Shown here: positions 40,238 through 45,604 of the stretch, piece by piece
How the letters are laid out: each line of letters opens with the position of its first letter
How positions within the stretch are numbered: the first letter of the stretch is position 1
NCBI RefSeq assembly: GCF_916619195.1
Contig: NZ_CAKAKL010000016.1
Span: 1 to 64,000, forward strand
Length of the DNA stretch: 64,000 bases
Direction of reading: 5' to 3'
From: Inquilinus sp. Marseille-Q2685
GTDB taxonomy: Bacteria; Pseudomonadota; Alphaproteobacteria; DSM-16000; Inquilinaceae
Notes under the pieces: model-generated
The model's input: only the letters and a program-made list of their open reading frames with translations
Told to the model about the DNA's origin: nothing
Databases searched by the model: none
Position numbers and translations under genes: made by a program

Positions 40238-40699
40238 ATGAGCCTCGCCCACGATCCCGATTTCCTGCGCCTCCTGGCCGGCAGCCATGCCCGGCTGGTC
40301 GGTACGCCGCTGCTGCCGGAAGAGGCCGGCACCGATGCCGCCGGGCAGGCGCGCTGGCTGTACGAGGCGGCGCCGTTCTGCGTGCTGGCGCACAACACCG
40401 ACGCCGATCCGCGCTTCATCTACGCCAACAAGGCGGCCCAGGCCCGCTTCGAATATGGCTGGGACGAGTTCACGACGCTGCCCTCCCGCCTTTCCGCCGA
40501 GGCGCCCGACCGGGCCGAGCGCCAGCGCCTGCTCGACGCCGTCGCCCGCGACGGCTTCATCGGCGACTATCGCGGCCTGCGCATCGCCAAATCCGGCCGC
40601 CGCTTCTGGATCGAGCGCGCCATCGTCTGGCAGCTGATCGACGAGGCCGGCGTGCTGCGCGGCCAGGCTGCAGCGTTCGGGGAATGGCGGGAGGTGTAG
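40238..40699 (+). CDS. MEKHLA domain protein
   Basis: 153 residues, one PAS-like MEKHLA domain: LLAGSHARLVGTPL, ARWLYEAAPFCVLAHNTDADPRFIYANKAAQARFEYGWDEFTTLPSRLSAE, then FIGDYRGLRIAKSGRRFWIERAIVWQLID. Members occur in bacteria and plants, function unknown; sensory or regulatory is a guess. It borders the low-G+C island on its right. Confidence 0.85.
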   Translation: MSLAHDPDFLRLLAGSHARLVGTPLLPEEAGTDAAGQARWLYEAAPFCVLAHNTDADPRFIYANKAAQARFEYGWDEFTTLPSRLSAEAPDRAERQRLLDAVARDGFIGDYRGLRIAKSGRRFWIERAIVWQLIDEAGVLRGQAAAFGEWREV

Positions 40700-40702
40700 G
40701 GC

Positions 40703-40730
40703 GGCTGTCGCCATTTTGGCGAAAACAGCC
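40703..40730. terminator. Hairpin between the MEKHLA and parA-like genes
   Basis: Nested arms GGCTGT/ACAGCC (40703-40708/40725-40730) and CGCCA/TGGCG (40709-40713/40717-40721) lie between convergent genes. No T tract beyond three A/T. It marks the left edge of the low-G+C island. Confidence 0.45.
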
Positions 40731-40746
40731 CTGACTTCGCGAAGCC

Positions 40747-41736
40747 TTAAATGCTAATCCCGACTTTGCTAGCGATCAGTTTGGCGAGCTGCTCGAAATC
40801 ATCATAGGCATCACCTACCGCCTGCTGATGTCCGCCGATCGCGCCGTCCGCCGGACGGAGTTTGAAGATTGGCTTACGAACTTCCTGCGCCATCGGCATC
40901 AGCGAGCGATAGTCCTTGAGCCAAGCGAGCTTGGCTGGATCGTTCTCGACGGTGAGAGCAGTACCGTTCGACTGCCGGAGAATGTCTCGATGAAACAATG
41001 TCGGGACACGGTCGATCCATCGCCGGAAATATCTAGCATGTTCTCCGGCATATGTCGAAAAGCGAGAGATGACGTATCCCAGTGGCTCAAGCTTGCCGTT
41101 TGGCCACGGAGTCTCGGGTGTTGGGTAGTCGTCTATCCGCTTCTTCCAACCATCCCGCCATTCCTGGATGCCTCGCCCGACATTGGTCAACCCCTTCAGT
41201 GAGAAGAGATCGGGCGCCACCGGCACGACGACGTAGTCCGCCCCGATCAGTGCCGAACGGTTGATTGCTCCGAGATTCGGGCCGATATCGATCAGCGCGA
41301 TAACGGCCTGAAACTCACGACCGGCGGTCTCGACAGCCCGAGCCAGGAATGTCGTATCTTGAAAAGCGCGTCTTTTGGTCAGATTACTGCCGCCAAGGCT
41401 TTCGCCCCATGCTGATGAGAGCGAGTCCTCAACACCCGACAGGTCCAGGTCGCCGGCGATCAGACCAAAGTTGTCGTCGATCTCCAGAATCTTCGGAGGC
41501 ACATTTTTTCCCTCCGCGATGAGAGGTGATGCGACGTCATAGATAGTATCGATCTCGTCGTTCTCGATAGCGGCCAACCGATCCTCGTCGAGGCACATTG
41601 CCGTCAGATTCGCCTGCGGGTCATAATCCGCCGCGATCACCCTGACGCCAAGATCAGAGAACATTGATGCCAAATGATAGACGAGCGTCGTTTTGCCAAC
41701 GCCACCCTTATTGTTAAAGAAGGCGATCGACTTCAT
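40747..41736 (-). CDS. ParA/MinD-type ATPase (island operon gene 2)
   Basis: 329 residues. Deviant Walker A NNKGGVGKTTLVYHLASMF (residues 8-26) with the signature second Lys, Walker A-prime ADYDPQANLTAM, and a Walker B-like ALIDIGPNLGAINRSAL. The sequence between and after (VVPVAPDLFSLKGLTNVGRGIQEW) fits chromosome- or plasmid-type ParA ATPases. There is no parB, no parS-like repeat, and no replication gene nearby. The start overlaps the stop of the AlbA_2 gene by 4 bp (ATGA), so the two are one operon. G+C is visibly lower than the surrounding genes, so acquired. It is intact, but polar effects from the IS upstream are likely. Confidence 0.88.
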   Translation of the reverse strand: MKSIAFFNNKGGVGKTTLVYHLASMFSDLGVRVIAADYDPQANLTAMCLDEDRLAAIENDEIDTIYDVASPLIAEGKNVPPKILEIDDNFGLIAGDLDLSGVEDSLSSAWGESLGGSNLTKRRAFQDTTFLARAVETAGREFQAVIALIDIGPNLGAINRSALIGADYVVVPVAPDLFSLKGLTNVGRGIQEWRDGWKKRIDDYPTPETPWPNGKLEPLGYVISRFSTYAGEHARYFRRWIDRVPTLFHRDILRQSNGTALTVENDPAKLAWLKDYRSLMPMAQEVRKPIFKLRPADGAIGGHQQAVGDAYDDFEQLAKLIASKVGISI

Positions 41737-42706
41737 TGAGCCGGCTCCACCTTGAAGAGCACGAAGTTTTCCAAGAACTGATATCCGAGTGGGGGATTCC
41801 CATTCTCCGCGAGCACCTGTCGGGCCCGAACCAGACCGAATCCGAAGCGCTCAACAATGCCGAGCGTCTTCAAACCTTCCGCGAGAGACGGATTGCGGTA
41901 GGCTGTCACATTCAGCCAAATCGTCTCGGGCGTGACTCCACCATAGAGTCCGCCCGGGCTCATAATCTCAATCCGATCAGAGTACCAGTAGACTTTTACC
42001 GGCATGGTGCTCGCATCATAGGTGCGATGTAGTATTGCGTTACGCACAACTTGTTCCAGGGCCTCGATCGGATAGTCGCTGCGTTCCTGCCGCTGTGTGC
42101 CGCCAATCGTAGTTGCTGTGCGGATGTTAAGTTTTAGAAGCTCCTCAATCTGTCGGGCCTGATCTGGAATTGTTCCGCTAATTTCTTTTTGATCGATGAT
42201 CGGATCGGTCAACGCAGGCCCGTCGAGTCGCAAGAATTGGATGTAAGCGCCAGAGAAGTACGAGCGCGGATCCTTGCCAAAAAGCAGGATAGCTGCGTTG
42301 GTGGGTTTGCCGTCCCTCGAAAGGAGCCGAAGGGCGCGCAATTTTTCTTCAGTACTCCGACCGTTCTGGCGCCGGATTTCGGGAGAGGTCGCCGAAGGGA
42401 CATACTCCGCCTCGAAGCGGATGAGATCCAGATCGTCCAAAGTAGCATCGGCGCAGGGCCGTGCATCGAAGGCGAGATTCTGCCATGTCTGCTTTTCGGC
42501 AAGCCGACGTTCCTCCTCCGGAGTTGCCGTTGCACGGCGAGGGCCGACGCGAATCCAGCTACGACCATTCACCCGGACTGGCGGCTGGGTCGACGGGGCG
42601 ACGATCACTGCAGCGACAGTGCATCCGTCAATGACGTGACGGCCGACCGACATGACCGGAAATGGTAAGATGGCGCCGTCGCTTCGCAGGCCTCCAAGAG
42701 TTTTTA

Positions 42707-43602
42707 GAGTCCGTTTGGAAACGGAGTTTAGTGAGCGATGCGTCGGAGGAGGAGGCTTCCCATGGCGACATGGATCATGGCCTCGGAGACGTCGATGCGG
42801 GCTTCGTAGTCGCGGACCAGGCGCCGCCATCGGGTCATCCATCCGAAGGTGCGCTCGACGACCCAGCGGCGCGGCAGGACCTTGAAGCCGGCGTCGATGC
42901 GGCGGACAACCTCGATCACGAAGTCGAGGTAGGCGGCCTTGTCCATGAGCTTGCCACGGTCATAGGCGCTGTCGGCGAACAGATGCTTGATCCAGGGCCA
43001 GCGCTTGCGGATCGCGGACAGGATCGTCTGGGCGCCGGCGCTGTCGGAGATGCCGGCCGGGGTGAGGTTCACCATCAAGAGGCGCCCATCGGTGTCGACG
43101 GCGACGTGCCGCTTGCGGCCCACCACCTTCTTGGCGCCATCGAAGCTGCGAACAGCACCAGGCGCCGGTGCCTTGATCGTCTGGCTGTCGAGGATGCCGC
43201 CGGAGGGGCTGGCACCGCGCCCGGCCTGCTCCCGGTCGATCATCAGCGCGATGTCATGGATCGTTCGGAACAGGAACAGCCGGACGAAGCGCCGGAACCA
43301 CCAGTACACCGTCTGCCAGGGCGGAAAGTTCACCGGAAGCATCCGCCAGCCACAGCCGGTCCGGGCCAGATACCGGATCGCATTCAGCACCTCGCGAAGC
43401 GCGATCTCTCGCCGACGCCCTGTCCTGGCCGGCTTCGGCAGCAGCGGCTCGACTTGCGACCATTCCTCATCCGTCAGGTCGGTCGGATAGCGACGCGTCT
43501 TCTTCTCGATCTCGGCCATCCGGCCACGGCTCGTTGCTGTCCACATCCACAGCTTGAATCACGAGCTCGCTTAAAACACCAGCCCTGTTTCCAAACAGGC
43601 TC
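42707..43602 (-). mobile_element. IS5-family insertion sequence (896 bp), IS427/IS1031-like
   Basis: Ends are imperfect inverted repeats: the left end starts GAGTCCGTTTGGAAACGGAG and the right end, read inward, GAGCCTGTTTGGAAACAGGG (16 of 20 match). A TTA target-site duplication flanks it (42704-42706 and 43603-43605), as in the 2-4-bp TNA-type duplications of this group. It carries one transposase. It sits inside the AlbA_2 gene. Confidence 0.9.
42728..43546 (-). CDS. IS5-family transposase (DDE)
   Basis: 272 residues, complete. N-terminal RYPTDLTDEEWSQVEPLLPKPARTGRRREIALREVLNAIRYLARTGCGWRMLP is the IS5 signature. Catalytic residues: Asp in GILDSQTIKAPAPG, Asp in HLFADSAYDRGKL, and Glu in RRWVVERTFGWMTRWRRL. 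The start MWT is typical; a second ATG at 43520 is possible. No frameshift, so it is of the single-ORF type and probably active. G+C matches the host background more than the island around it. Confidence 0.94.
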   Translation of the reverse strand: MWTATSRGRMAEIEKKTRRYPTDLTDEEWSQVEPLLPKPARTGRRREIALREVLNAIRYLARTGCGWRMLPVNFPPWQTVYWWFRRFVRLFLFRTIHDIALMIDREQAGRGASPSGGILDSQTIKAPAPGAVRSFDGAKKVVGRKRHVAVDTDGRLLMVNLTPAGISDSAGAQTILSAIRKRWPWIKHLFADSAYDRGKLMDKAAYLDFVIEVVRRIDAGFKVLPRRWVVERTFGWMTRWRRLVRDYEARIDVSEAMIHVAMGSLLLRRIAH

Positions 43603-44037
43603 TTAGAAGTTCGTCATCGATAGTGATACCGGCACAGGTTCCGTCGTCATCCTGCCCAATGAAAATAATCCCCGGCAGCCGATGGTTGGGCAGATCGTTG
43701 GCAAAGGCACAAATGGCTTGCCGGACCGCATCTCGATTCGATGGGTAATCGCGCTTGCGCTCGACCCGATCAGATTCGATGTCCCTGAAAAGTTCCGCGA
43801 TCTCAGCGTCTGTAAGCATCAGCCTCTCTCCGCGTCTGCACCCTACCGCGGCGCCTCTCCGGAGACCAGCGACCTCATGGAGTGTCTAACCAGTGTCTCT
43901 GATATGGCCTTGCAGCCGCAGCTCGCCGATGCTCGGCGGGTGCCGACCGAGCGTGACGGAGCGCTGGAACGCCGCGCCGATGGCCCGATTCTGGCGTTGG
44001 CTGCTGCGCATGGTCGCGGAGGAAACCTCGGCCACCG

Positions 44038-45426
44038 TCACGAGCCCTGCCGCGTCCCGACCTGCTGCCAGTGCCCGGGGTTGAGCACCAGCCGGCCGGC
44101 ATCCTCGAAGCGCAGGGTCAGCGGGTAGCGCCCCGGCACCATGAAGTCGGTGGCCGAGACCGGCTTCAGCTCGGTCCGCTCTTCCTTGCCGATGGCGAAG
44201 GCGGCGCGGGCGCCGGTGGCCTGGGCGAACAAGCGGTCGCCCTCGGCCGTCACCCTCACCGTGACGAACGGGCTGAAGACGTAGTCGCCGGCCAGGGCCT
44301 TCGCCTGGTCGGCCGACACCACCGGCTTGCTGGCGGGCGTCGCCGGCTGCGGCTGGTCCGGCACCGAGGTCAGGATCGCGTCCCACATCGCCTCGCCGCC
44401 GATCACCCCGAGGTCGACCGTTGGCAGCATCGCCGCCTCGTCCTCCAGCTCGCCGGTCGAGACGGCGTACAGCACGTCGCCGTCGAACTCGGTGGCGAAA
44501 GGCTGCAGCGCCCGGCCCATCGAGCTGTGCACCTGGATCGCCAGGCGCTGCAGCTCCGCCGGCTTCAGCTTCTGGTTGGTGACGACCAGGCTGACCGTGG
44601 TGTTGCGCGCAGGGGCGTCGGCGTTCGGCGCGCCGGTCCAGCCCGGCTTGCGGCTGGCCGGATAGCCCGCCAGCAGCGCCGCGGCGGTCAGGTCCTTCGG
44701 CCAGCCTTCATCGCCATAGCAGGCCGCCACGGTGCCGTCCCGCCTCGTCACCACGCCCAGGGCATTGACCACGACGAAGGCGGCGACCTTGACCTGCCCG
44801 ACCTGGCGGAAGGCGCCGCCCTGGCCGGAATGGGCGTTGCAGCCGAACAGCGATCCCGTCATGGCCAGACGCCCGGCGCCCTGGGCGCCCAGCGGGAACA
44901 CGCCGGGCTTGGCGGCGCGGAAGGCGGCCTGGGCCAGCCGCTTGTCGGGCACGATCTCGTTCAGCCGGCGGCCGCCGAGGTCATAGATGATGGCGCCGAC
45001 CGAGAGGGCGATGTTGTCCCAATGGCCGCCGCGGATGCCGTCCTCCTTCAGTGCCGAGGCGACGGCGGTGGTGGCCTCGAGCCCGTACCAGGAGCCACCG
45101 GAGAACACCACGGCGTCCAGCTCCGGCGCGTCGTAGCCCAGGCGCAGATAGTCGGTGTTGACCGTGCCGGGCCCGCCGCCGCGGACATCCACGGCCGCCA
45201 GCGACCGCCGGTCGAAATGGAACACGGTGACGCCGGTCGGCCCCTCCTCGTACTCGCCGGGGCCGCCCCGCACCGCCGGCCAGTCGAACTTCAGCCCCTT
45301 GTCGCCGGCGTTCAGCCCCGGGGCCGGCGCCTCCTGGGCCGCGGCCGACGCCGCCAGCAGCGCGACGAGCAGGCCGGTGGCGAGCGCCCCGCCGATCGAT
45401 CCGGCCCTGTTCCCTCGATTCCGCAT
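44038..45426 (-). CDS. P1 (S58/DmpA-type) family peptidase, secreted
   Basis: 462 residues from the ATG at 45426 (AGGGGGA upstream), with a signal peptide (LLVALLAASAAAQEA). The P1 family core shows KFDWPAVRGGPGEYEEGPTGVTVFHFDRRSLAAVDVRGGGPGT, FSGGSWYGLEATTAVASALKEDGIRGG and GRRLNEIVPDKRLAQAAFRAAKPGVFPLGAQGAGR. DmpA-type enzymes are N-terminal nucleophile aminopeptidases that self-cleave; I could not assign the nucleophile residue. The region from 43820 to 44037 between it and the AlbA_2 gene holds only the island edge and no convincing gene. Confidence 0.75.
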   Translation of the reverse strand: MRNRGNRAGSIGGALATGLLVALLAASAAAQEAPAPGLNAGDKGLKFDWPAVRGGPGEYEEGPTGVTVFHFDRRSLAAVDVRGGGPGTVNTDYLRLGYDAPELDAVVFSGGSWYGLEATTAVASALKEDGIRGGHWDNIALSVGAIIYDLGGRRLNEIVPDKRLAQAAFRAAKPGVFPLGAQGAGRLAMTGSLFGCNAHSGQGGAFRQVGQVKVAAFVVVNALGVVTRRDGTVAACYGDEGWPKDLTAAALLAGYPASRKPGWTGAPNADAPARNTTVSLVVTNQKLKPAELQRLAIQVHSSMGRALQPFATEFDGDVLYAVSTGELEDEAAMLPTVDLGVIGGEAMWDAILTSVPDQPQPATPASKPVVSADQAKALAGDYVFSPFVTVRVTAEGDRLFAQATGARAAFAIGKEERTELKPVSATDFMVPGRYPLTLRFEDAGRLVLNPGHWQQVGTRQGS

Positions 45427-45604
45427 CCCATCCCCCTGTCGATGACCCGCCGGCTGCCCCGGCATGAAACGGGAATGCTGTCCCAACCACGCCGCGGGCG
45501 GAAGGGATAAAGGCGCCACGGTTGGCGATCATGCGCACCGGCCATGGCGCTGCGGCTGCCCAGCCCCATCTTCATGGGGGCGACAGCGCAGACGGAGGCA
45601 GGCG

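What the first reader, a model, noticed from the sequence alone, without database searches (positions are those of the whole stretch)
40703..43860. Low-G+C island with an AlbA_2-HATPase/ParA operon, a candidate undescribed system
Two overlapping genes (ATGA), a Schlafen-type AlbA_2/HATPase_c_4 protein and a ParA/MinD-type ATPase without ParB, form an operon of lower G+C than their surroundings, flanked by ordinary chromosomal genes. AlbA_2 domains bind nucleic acid and occur in several defence systems, and ParA-like ATPases give ATP-dependent positioning or switching. A nucleic-acid-sensing effector pair, perhaps against phage or plasmids, is an attractive hypothesis. I know of no described system made of exactly these two.
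Basis: inference. Interest (0 to 1): 0.8.

Follow-up and report, generated by a model that had tools for sequence, protein, structure and literature searches.

The report
Schlafen–ParA two-gene conflict module
A bacterial gene pair, a Schlafen-type RNA-cutter candidate and a ParA-like ATPase, is found together in many phyla and looks like a toxin-and-regulator defence unit; in this strain a jumping element has recently broken the Schlafen gene.

Summary
Window 40747-43819(-) carries a Schlafen AlbA_2/HATPase_c_4 gene and a ParA-like ATPase gene overlapping by ATGA, at 0.54-0.57 G+C against 0.71 outside, between two genes that are near neighbours in five congeners. The Schlafen gene is split by an 896-bp IS5-family element with TTA duplications and three identical copies elsewhere, so the pair was probably intact until recently. 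The pair is widely conserved: 79 of the 80 best ParA relatives, from 20 named phyla, have the Schlafen gene (a few decayed) just upstream; the 80th keeps a remnant. In 398 genomes, 20 of 20 close Schlafen relatives have ParA beside them. Related ParAs pair instead with SIR2, HEPN, RelA/SpoT or a cyclase-like gene, often in viral contigs. At least 11 of 80 loci lie in or beside BREX-related, BREX or restriction genes. The Schlafen domain keeps SLFN13's E-E-D triad at identical spacing. Best reading: a toxin- or abortive-infection-like module in which ParA regulates a Schlafen RNase. A HEPN-ParA dyad was predicted as toxin-antitoxin in 2013, so this is a new variant. Function is inferred, not tested.

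The parts
40747..41736 (-). ParA/Soj-like ATPase gene (329 aa), intact; residues K10, K15, D39 and D150 present
   Evidence: Pfam AAA_31; among 80 relatives K10 is kept in 78, K15 in 76, D39 and D150 in 80
41733..41736 (-). ATGA overlap of the Schlafen stop and ParA start
   Evidence: sequence; a start giving the same 4-nt overlap is present in at least 67 of 80 relatives
41733..42706 (-). 3' part of the Schlafen-HATPase gene (by alignment the rest of the AlbA_2 domain, the middle, and HATPase_c_4)
   Evidence: Pfam HATPase_c_4 E 7.7e-15; aligns with orthologues
42707..43602 (-). IS5-family insertion element, 896 bp, interrupting the Schlafen gene; transposase ORF 42728-43546(-)
   Evidence: NF033580 IS5 transposase E 3.7e-66; inverted ends and TTA repeats; 4 identical copies in the genome including this one
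42704..42706 (.). TTA target-site duplication, first copy
43603..43605 (.). TTA target-site duplication, second copy
43603..43819 (-). 5' part of the Schlafen gene: start and first half of the AlbA_2 domain with E15, E20, D58
   Evidence: Pfam SLFN_AlbA_2 E 3.7e-7; E15 and E20 in 78 of 78 relatives with letters there, D58 column D in 68 and N in 8
40238..40699 (+). flanking gene (MEKHLA domain), outside the module
   Evidence: 15-255 nt from the S58 gene in 5 of 5 congeners
44038..45519 (-). flanking gene (S58 peptidase), outside the module

Best explanation
It is a horizontally acquired two-gene conflict module. The first gene makes a Schlafen-type (AlbA_2) endoribonuclease candidate joined to a GHKL-like ATP-binding domain; the second makes a dedicated ParA/Soj-type ATPase that works as its regulator. 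Proposed cycle: in the uninfected cell the ATPase holds the Schlafen protein inactive; an invader signal changes its nucleotide or partner-bound state; the Schlafen domain is released and cuts tRNA or rRNA, stopping translation and phage growth (abortive-infection or toxin-antitoxin-like). Shown here by sequence: the pairing, its overlapping genes, its insertion between two otherwise neighbouring genes, the E-E-D triad, the ATPase motifs, the different partners of sister ParAs, and the defence context of some loci. Inferred: RNase activity, regulation by ParA and its sign, the trigger. In this strain the module is probably dead because an IS splits the Schlafen gene.
For: Conserved pair: 79 of the 80 best ParA relatives have the Schlafen gene just upstream on the same strand, the 80th keeps a remnant; 20 of 20 close Schlafen relatives in 398 phylum genomes, own included, have ParA adjacent; pairwise distances of the two proteins over 74 loci correlate, r 0.657, best of 2000 permutations 0.159. 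Different partners: 29 ParA loci classified gave Schlafen 18, SIR2 4, HEPN 3, RelA/SpoT 2, cyclase-like 1, none 1; labels need 8 changes on a quick ParA tree against a minimum of 5 and 37.6 for shuffles. Triad: E15/E20/D58 with the spacing of SLFN13 E205/E210/D248 (PMC5862951, passages). Defence context: methylase/helicase genes of the Hma/BREX-related kind in 9 of 80 loci, type III restriction in L102, PglX in L126. Mobility: filled site here against near-adjacent flanks in 5 of 5 congeners, low G+C, relatives in 20 named phyla.
Against: No activity was measured and no paper found tests this pair. At most of the 80 loci no defence gene was recognised (153 of 281 listed neighbours scanned), and the control was small (80 genes, 20 stretches, 8 genomes) and itself gave methylase and defence hits. 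Of 16 viral ParA loci checked only 2 had the Schlafen gene, so this arm is not clearly phage-borne. Four of 80 ParAs have lost the P-loop lysine (K15 to Q or T), hard to square with obligatory ATP use if those copies work. A same-family ParA (G006) has no Schlafen gene and no remnant in 14 kb. Several Schlafen genes are decayed, so the pair is dispensable. D58 is N in 8 of 78. Distance correlation also arises from plain joint inheritance.
Confidence: 0.6

Rival explanations
1. Transcription-regulator pair: the AlbA_2/HATPase protein binds DNA, as RecG-related regulators are annotated, and ParA modulates it, controlling neighbouring or stress genes.
For: Wider Schlafen-HATPase relatives can carry a winged helix (L033, 1 of 6 scanned); AlbA_2 is called DNA-binding in the pAgo survey (PMC6299218, passages).
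Against: No helix-turn-helix, and no room for one after HATPase_c_4, in the 4 clade members scanned; neighbours differ between loci; the triad glutamates are invariant; sister ParAs pair with enzyme-type effectors.
Confidence: 0.15
2. Accessory part of BREX-related or restriction systems rather than a stand-alone unit: it acts only as a back-up effector when the main system is inhibited.
For: The pair lies inside or beside methylase-helicase(-DUF499) runs in 9 of 80 loci, beside type III restriction in L102 and PglX in L126; Schlafen RNases are described as back-up effectors there (PMC12839542, passages).
Against: No such genes were recognised at most loci (part of the neighbours scanned); in the window the two nearest genes on either side are ordinary.
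Confidence: 0.15
3. ParA is itself the sensing and executing defence protein, and the Schlafen gene is its modifier.
For: Relatives of this ParA without a recognised partner occur in phage repressor regions (ST160 L062, E. coli L067); a single-gene prophage AAA_31/ParA-like protein, GiPD474, gives phage resistance (PMC12724215; abstract, section 4 part 1, section 10 and passages).
Against: GiPD474's sequence could not be fetched, so its place in this family is untested; in the window's clade ParA is rarely alone (G006 is the one case seen).
Confidence: 0.06
4. DNA partition or positioning system.
For: ParA/Soj-type ATPase fold and motifs.
Against: No ParB-like protein seen in the 80 loci (a weak test); in the window the pair sits between two chromosomal-type genes; partners are effector-type domains.
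Confidence: 0.04

Closest known systems
HEPN (MAE_18760)-ParA/Soj ATPase dyad predicted as toxin-antitoxin (Anantharaman et al. 2013, PMC3710099; passages read)
   Same: Two-gene dyad of an RNase-type toxin with a ParA/Soj-like ATPase; ATPase proposed as antitoxin
   Different: Toxin there is a HEPN protein; here it is a Schlafen AlbA_2-HATPase protein, placed before ParA. The HEPN partners I found match Pfam HEPN_RiboL-PSP; I did not test them against MAE_18760
Schlafen RNase fused to a minimal histidine kinase and winged helix, BREX back-up effector (PMC12839542, passages)
   Same: Schlafen plus histidine-kinase-type ATPase domain, near BREX and BREX-related cores
   Different: No winged helix in the 4 clade members scanned, separate ParA partner, often with no BREX gene recognised nearby; ParA is not named in that paper's main text (0 whole-word hits)
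SLFN13 (PMC5862951, passages)
   Same: Two glutamates and an aspartate at spacing 5 and 38
   Different: One AlbA_2 domain with an ATP-binding domain, not the pseudo-dimer; activity unknown
GiPD474, Gifsy-1 prophage defence protein (PMC12724215; abstract, section 4 part 1, section 10 and passages)
   Same: AAA_31/ParA-like, phage resistance
   Different: Single gene; sequence not compared here
PDB 3pg5 (ParA-family member, 'uncharacterized protein') and 3lmm, 2kyy (Schlafen/HATPase relatives)
   Same: 3pg5 matches the ParA profile over nearly its whole length, E 1.7e-70; 3lmm matches the HATPase part (E 2.3e-13), 2kyy the AlbA_2 part (E 0.0017)
   Different: No function is given in the names listed

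Membership tests
Schlafen (SLFN AlbA_2) RNases | AlbA_2 domain | tested here: met
   N-terminal piece over the Pfam cut-off (31.1 against 25.3 bits); 4 of 4 intact orthologues scanned also
Schlafen (SLFN AlbA_2) RNases | E-E-D carboxylate triad at SLFN13 spacing (5, 38) | tested here: met
   E15, E20, D58; kept in 78, 78 and 68 of 78 relatives with letters there
Schlafen (SLFN AlbA_2) RNases | RNA cleavage | not testable with these tools
   needs protein
Schlafen-histidine-kinase-wHTH proteins of BREX | C-terminal winged helix | tested here: not met
   none, and only 4-16 residues left after HATPase_c_4, in 4 of 4 clade members scanned; present in 1 of 6 wider relatives
HEPN-ParA/Soj toxin-antitoxin dyad | ParA/Soj-like ATPase gene adjacent to a toxin-type gene | tested here: met
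HEPN-ParA/Soj toxin-antitoxin dyad | HEPN toxin | tested here: not met
   partner is SLFN_AlbA_2/HATPase_c_4; HEPN occurs with a sister ParA clade
HEPN-ParA/Soj toxin-antitoxin dyad | toxicity relieved by the ATPase | not testable with these tools
   needs experiment
ParABS partition | ParB-type partner | tested here: not met
   0 of 80 loci by phmmer with one ParB (ORFs of 150 aa or more) and by one motif; a weak test
ParA/MinD ATPases | deviant Walker A with signature lysine, Walker A' and B aspartates (motif names recalled) | tested here: met
   4 of 80 relatives lack the P-loop lysine
BREX / BREX-related (Hma) | core methylase, helicase, ATPase genes at the locus | tested here: not met
   not among the two genes scanned on each side of the pair in the window; seen at other loci
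GiPD474 family | sequence kinship with GiPD474 | not tested
   its sequence was not fetched; phage, E. coli and viral searches did not identify it

The most novel reading that the evidence does not exclude
A ParA/Soj-type ATPase family has left DNA partition and become a general controller of toxic effectors, with different ParA clades matched to different effector classes (Schlafen RNase, SIR2, HEPN RNase, RelA/SpoT alarmone-type enzyme, cyclase-like protein), in bacteria, in one archaeal metagenome bin and in viral contigs. The Schlafen-ParA pair, the arm searched most widely here, is a stand-alone anti-phage system that is also plugged into BREX-related and restriction operons.
Probability: 0.5. 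Interest if true: 0.8.

Novelty: new variant of a known kind. Interest (0 to 1): 0.62.

Why it matters
It would give a name and a mechanism to many genes now annotated as 'ParA-like partition protein' or 'RecG-like helicase', some of them in phages, add a Schlafen RNase arm to bacterial immunity that mirrors animal Schlafens, and ask how a ParA-type nucleotide switch controls effectors as different as SIR2, HEPN, RelA/SpoT and Schlafen. It is directly testable with two small genes in E. coli.

Tried and rejected
Rejected: partition system (no ParB seen). Rejected: pair as a chance neighbour. PADLOC gave no specific model for the pair; its hits to pAgo-associated models cover mainly the middle and HATPase part of the Schlafen protein and the PDC-M28B hits only the P-loop region. 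Scans of viral contigs with the single window proteins confirmed no relative; an alignment did.

Tried and not settled: whether GiPD474 belongs to this family; its published motif position and length matched no locus of the set examined. Whether the Schlafen gene breaks more often than ParA: in the 80 loci, five (L111, L135, L136, L143, L147) lack one full Schlafen ORF, L104 has a remnant, and L072 and L145 are at a contig start; in the class sample G146 and G238 are broken too. Many are metagenome assemblies and ParA was the search key, so no claim is made.

In the phylum sample 29 of 44 places were classified; the window's own place was left out and 14 had no locus; partner types there rest on my own profiles. 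Viral loci: of 80 kept only L149-L164 were examined. In L151-L164 a SIR2-like gene lies directly downstream in 11 of 14, two are cut by the contig end, one has another gene; only L152 and L159 were scanned with Pfam, the rest judged by eye from printed starts. The RelA/SpoT-like partners of the second viral set were likewise judged by eye. The 85 rows of the tree were my choice (every fourth of the 80 genome loci, and named others), on a quick tree; the three RelA/SpoT rows fall in two places, one on a very long branch, 'solo' rows in several. Gene calls in flanks come from my own simple ORF picker. For the defence-neighbour scan I gave 153 of 281 listed neighbours, 74 of 143 upstream and 79 of 138 downstream, picked by hand with a lean to longer and same-strand genes; PADLOC printed only the first 25 families per set. 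HmaA, HmaB and HmaC appear in the test tallies and not among the first 25 of 30 families of the control (80 genes); mad3 appears in both.
Full report
WHAT IS THERE. On the minus strand, 43819 to 40747, lie a Schlafen AlbA_2/HATPase_c_4 gene and a ParA-like gene sharing ATGA at 41733-41736. The ParA protein (329 aa) is AAA_31, E 1.1e-28. The Schlafen gene is in two pieces: the N-terminal piece matches SLFN_AlbA_2 (31.1 bits, cut-off 25.3), the C-terminal piece HATPase_c_4 (55.1 bits, cut-off 26). Between them is an 896-bp IS5-family element, 42707-43602, transposase E 3.7e-66, with imperfect inverted ends and TTA on both sides. Four identical copies, this one included, are in the genome; of the other three, two show a 3-bp repeat (TTA, TAA) and one has TGA and TAA at its ends. 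The insertion is therefore recent. The rest of both genes reads open.

ISLAND. G+C is 0.558 for ParA and 0.569/0.535 for the Schlafen parts; 970-nt windows outside the island average 0.708 (sd 0.028, minimum 0.645). In all 5 congeners searched the two flanking genes (MEKHLA gene and S58 peptidase) lie next to each other, 15, 21, 21, 26 and 255 nt apart by match ends, whereas here they are 3.3 kb apart. None of these 5 congeners has a ParA match at E 1e-20. This is an acquired insertion in an otherwise conserved place.

CONSERVATION OF THE PAIR. In 385 genomes of the class, 7 (own included) carry both genes side by side, and the 6 others hold the 6 best foreign ParA matches (48-52% identity); in two of them (G146, G238) the Schlafen gene is broken. 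A profile built from Schlafen orthologues finds that gene, or pieces of it, just upstream on the same strand in 79 of 80; the one clearly wider gap is L100, 133 nt. The exception, L104, keeps a C-terminal remnant just before ParA. A start giving the same 4-nt overlap is present in 67 of 80 by script (a stricter choice of start gave 53). The 80 fall into 20 named phyla, one archaeal, with 2 unassigned; most are metagenome bins. From the other side, in 398 genomes of the phylum the 20 closest Schlafen relatives (best piece E 3e-49 or better, own included) all have ParA next to them, while 6 weaker Schlafen-HATPase matches (E about 1e-41 to 1e-43) do not. Distances of the two proteins over 74 loci correlate at 0.657; the best of 2000 permutations reached 0.159. 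One counter-example is G006, of the window's own family: its ParA (47% identity) has no Schlafen gene or detectable remnant within the 14 kb read.

ONE ATPASE FAMILY, MANY PARTNERS. 40 of 398 phylum genomes, own included, hold a ParA-family match at E 1e-30. Of 44 places, 29 were classified: Schlafen 18, SIR2 4, HEPN 3, RelA/SpoT 2, cyclase-like 1, none 1. The query alignment held 3 Schlafen-type ParAs among 16 and places were taken best first, so proportions are rough. Pfam confirms SIR2_2 (L051, L152, L159), HEPN_RiboL-PSP (L053, L060, L063) and RelA_SpoT (L052); the cyclase-like protein (L058) has no Pfam match and is so named from its look only. Eleven of 13 SIR2 pairs measured also overlap by 4 nt. 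On a quick tree of 85 ParAs the six labels (five partner types and 'solo') need 8 changes against a minimum of 5; shuffles need 37.6. SIR2 and the cyclase-like partner are each one side of a branch, Schlafen is one group but for one solo row, HEPN is one group with Pf1 inside it, and the three RelA/SpoT rows fall in two places, one on a very long branch. So ParA clades are largely, not perfectly, matched to effector classes. Many SIR2 and RelA/SpoT pairs are in viral contigs, some next to an integrase or to a protein that I take, from memory, for a P2-type portal. Solo members lie close to phage repressors in ST160 (L062) and E. coli (L067). The Schlafen arm itself was in only 2 of 16 viral loci checked (L149, L150).

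DEFENCE CONTEXT. In 9 of 80 loci (L072, L073, L074, L077, L092, L094, L107, L118, L139) proteins related to the DUF1156 methylase of L073 or to the accompanying helicases lie in the same stretch, in several as one same-strand run: for example helicase, Schlafen, ParA, methylase, DUF499 ATPase in L094. PADLOC names such proteins Hma. L102 has type III restriction upstream and L126 PglX. These components resemble the BREX-related systems of PMC12839542 (passages), which lists Schlafen RNases fused to a minimal histidine kinase as back-up effectors and has no whole-word hit for ParA in its main text. A control of 80 genes from 20 arbitrary stretches of 8 genomes gave 30 PADLOC families against 141 (74 genes) and 93 (79 genes) in the test sets, with no Hma among the 25 shown, but it did contain methylase, BrxHI-type and Dpd hits. 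The test genes were hand-picked with a lean to long ones, so this is an indication, not a measured enrichment. At most loci no defence gene was recognised.

MOTIFS. SLFN13 needs two glutamates and an aspartate, E205, E210, D248 in the rat protein (PMC5862951, passages). The window's N-terminal piece has E15, E20 and D58, the same spacing (5 and 38). In 78 relatives with letters there, both glutamates are in 78, the aspartate column is D in 68 and N in 8. In the HATPase part N222, H226, E246 and G251 (numbered in the C-terminal piece) are in all aligned relatives. ParA keeps K10 in 78, K15 in 76, D39 and D150 in 80 of 80; the four without K15 (L080, L088, L099, L100) have Q or T. The motif names for ParA are recalled. 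Solved relatives exist: 3pg5 for ParA, 3lmm and 2kyy for parts of the Schlafen protein.

HOW IT PROBABLY WORKS. The partner classes that replace Schlafen are known toxin or immune effector types (general knowledge), so the shared ATPase is most simply their controller. I propose that ParA holds the Schlafen protein inactive and that an infection signal changes this, releasing an RNase that stops translation. The 2013 HEPN survey made the same argument for its HEPN-ParA dyad, with ParA as antitoxin (PMC3710099, passages). Whether ParA inhibits or activates is open. In solo cases ParA may act by itself, as GiPD474 does (PMC12724215; abstract, section 4 part 1, section 10 and passages), though its kinship is unproven here.

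WHAT IS NEW. In the library searched (open-access PubMed Central only) I found no description of a Schlafen-ParA pair, nor of one ParA family with SIR2, RelA/SpoT, HEPN and Schlafen partners. A 2025 preprint on bacterial Schlafens could not be read and might cover part of it. Since a HEPN-ParA dyad was predicted earlier, I rate this a new variant of a known kind.

Noticed in passing
L104:2625-4580: Cyanobacterial protein with a caspase domain, a weak HATPase_c_4 match and pentapeptide repeats, 1.3 kb upstream of a Schlafen-clade ParA whose own Schlafen gene is a remnant; possibly an effector swap.
   Followed up: partly
L052:576-1163 and L267:917-1468: A third gene (195 and 183 aa, alike by eye in the stretch printed) precedes ParA in two RelA/SpoT-type loci; function unknown.
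   Followed up: no
L058:6023-6733 and L271:2539-3273: Partner proteins of about 240 aa related to each other, with no Pfam match in L058; look cyclase-like.
   Followed up: partly
L080, L088, L099, L100 (ParA genes): ParA copies whose P-loop lysine is replaced by Q or T although the Schlafen partner gene is open.
   Followed up: partly
L062:2995-4068 (Salmonella phage ST160) and L059:4073-5026 (Pf1): Genes annotated as ParA-like partition or regulatory proteins fall in this ParA family, have no ParB annotated nearby, and sit close to the repressor (ST160) or an att site (Pf1); probably accessory or defence genes rather than partition genes.
   Followed up: partly
L077:2792-4432: A second, longer gene (546 aa) matching the Schlafen-HATPase profile (E 3.1e-21) is the next gene upstream of the Schlafen-ParA pair and lies downstream of a helicase-like gene.
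   Followed up: no
L071, L084, L088, L108: In four cyanobacterial loci a mutually related protein of about 930-990 aa lies upstream of the pair; the UvrA Pfam domains counted in 4 upstream neighbours probably belong to these four.
   Followed up: no
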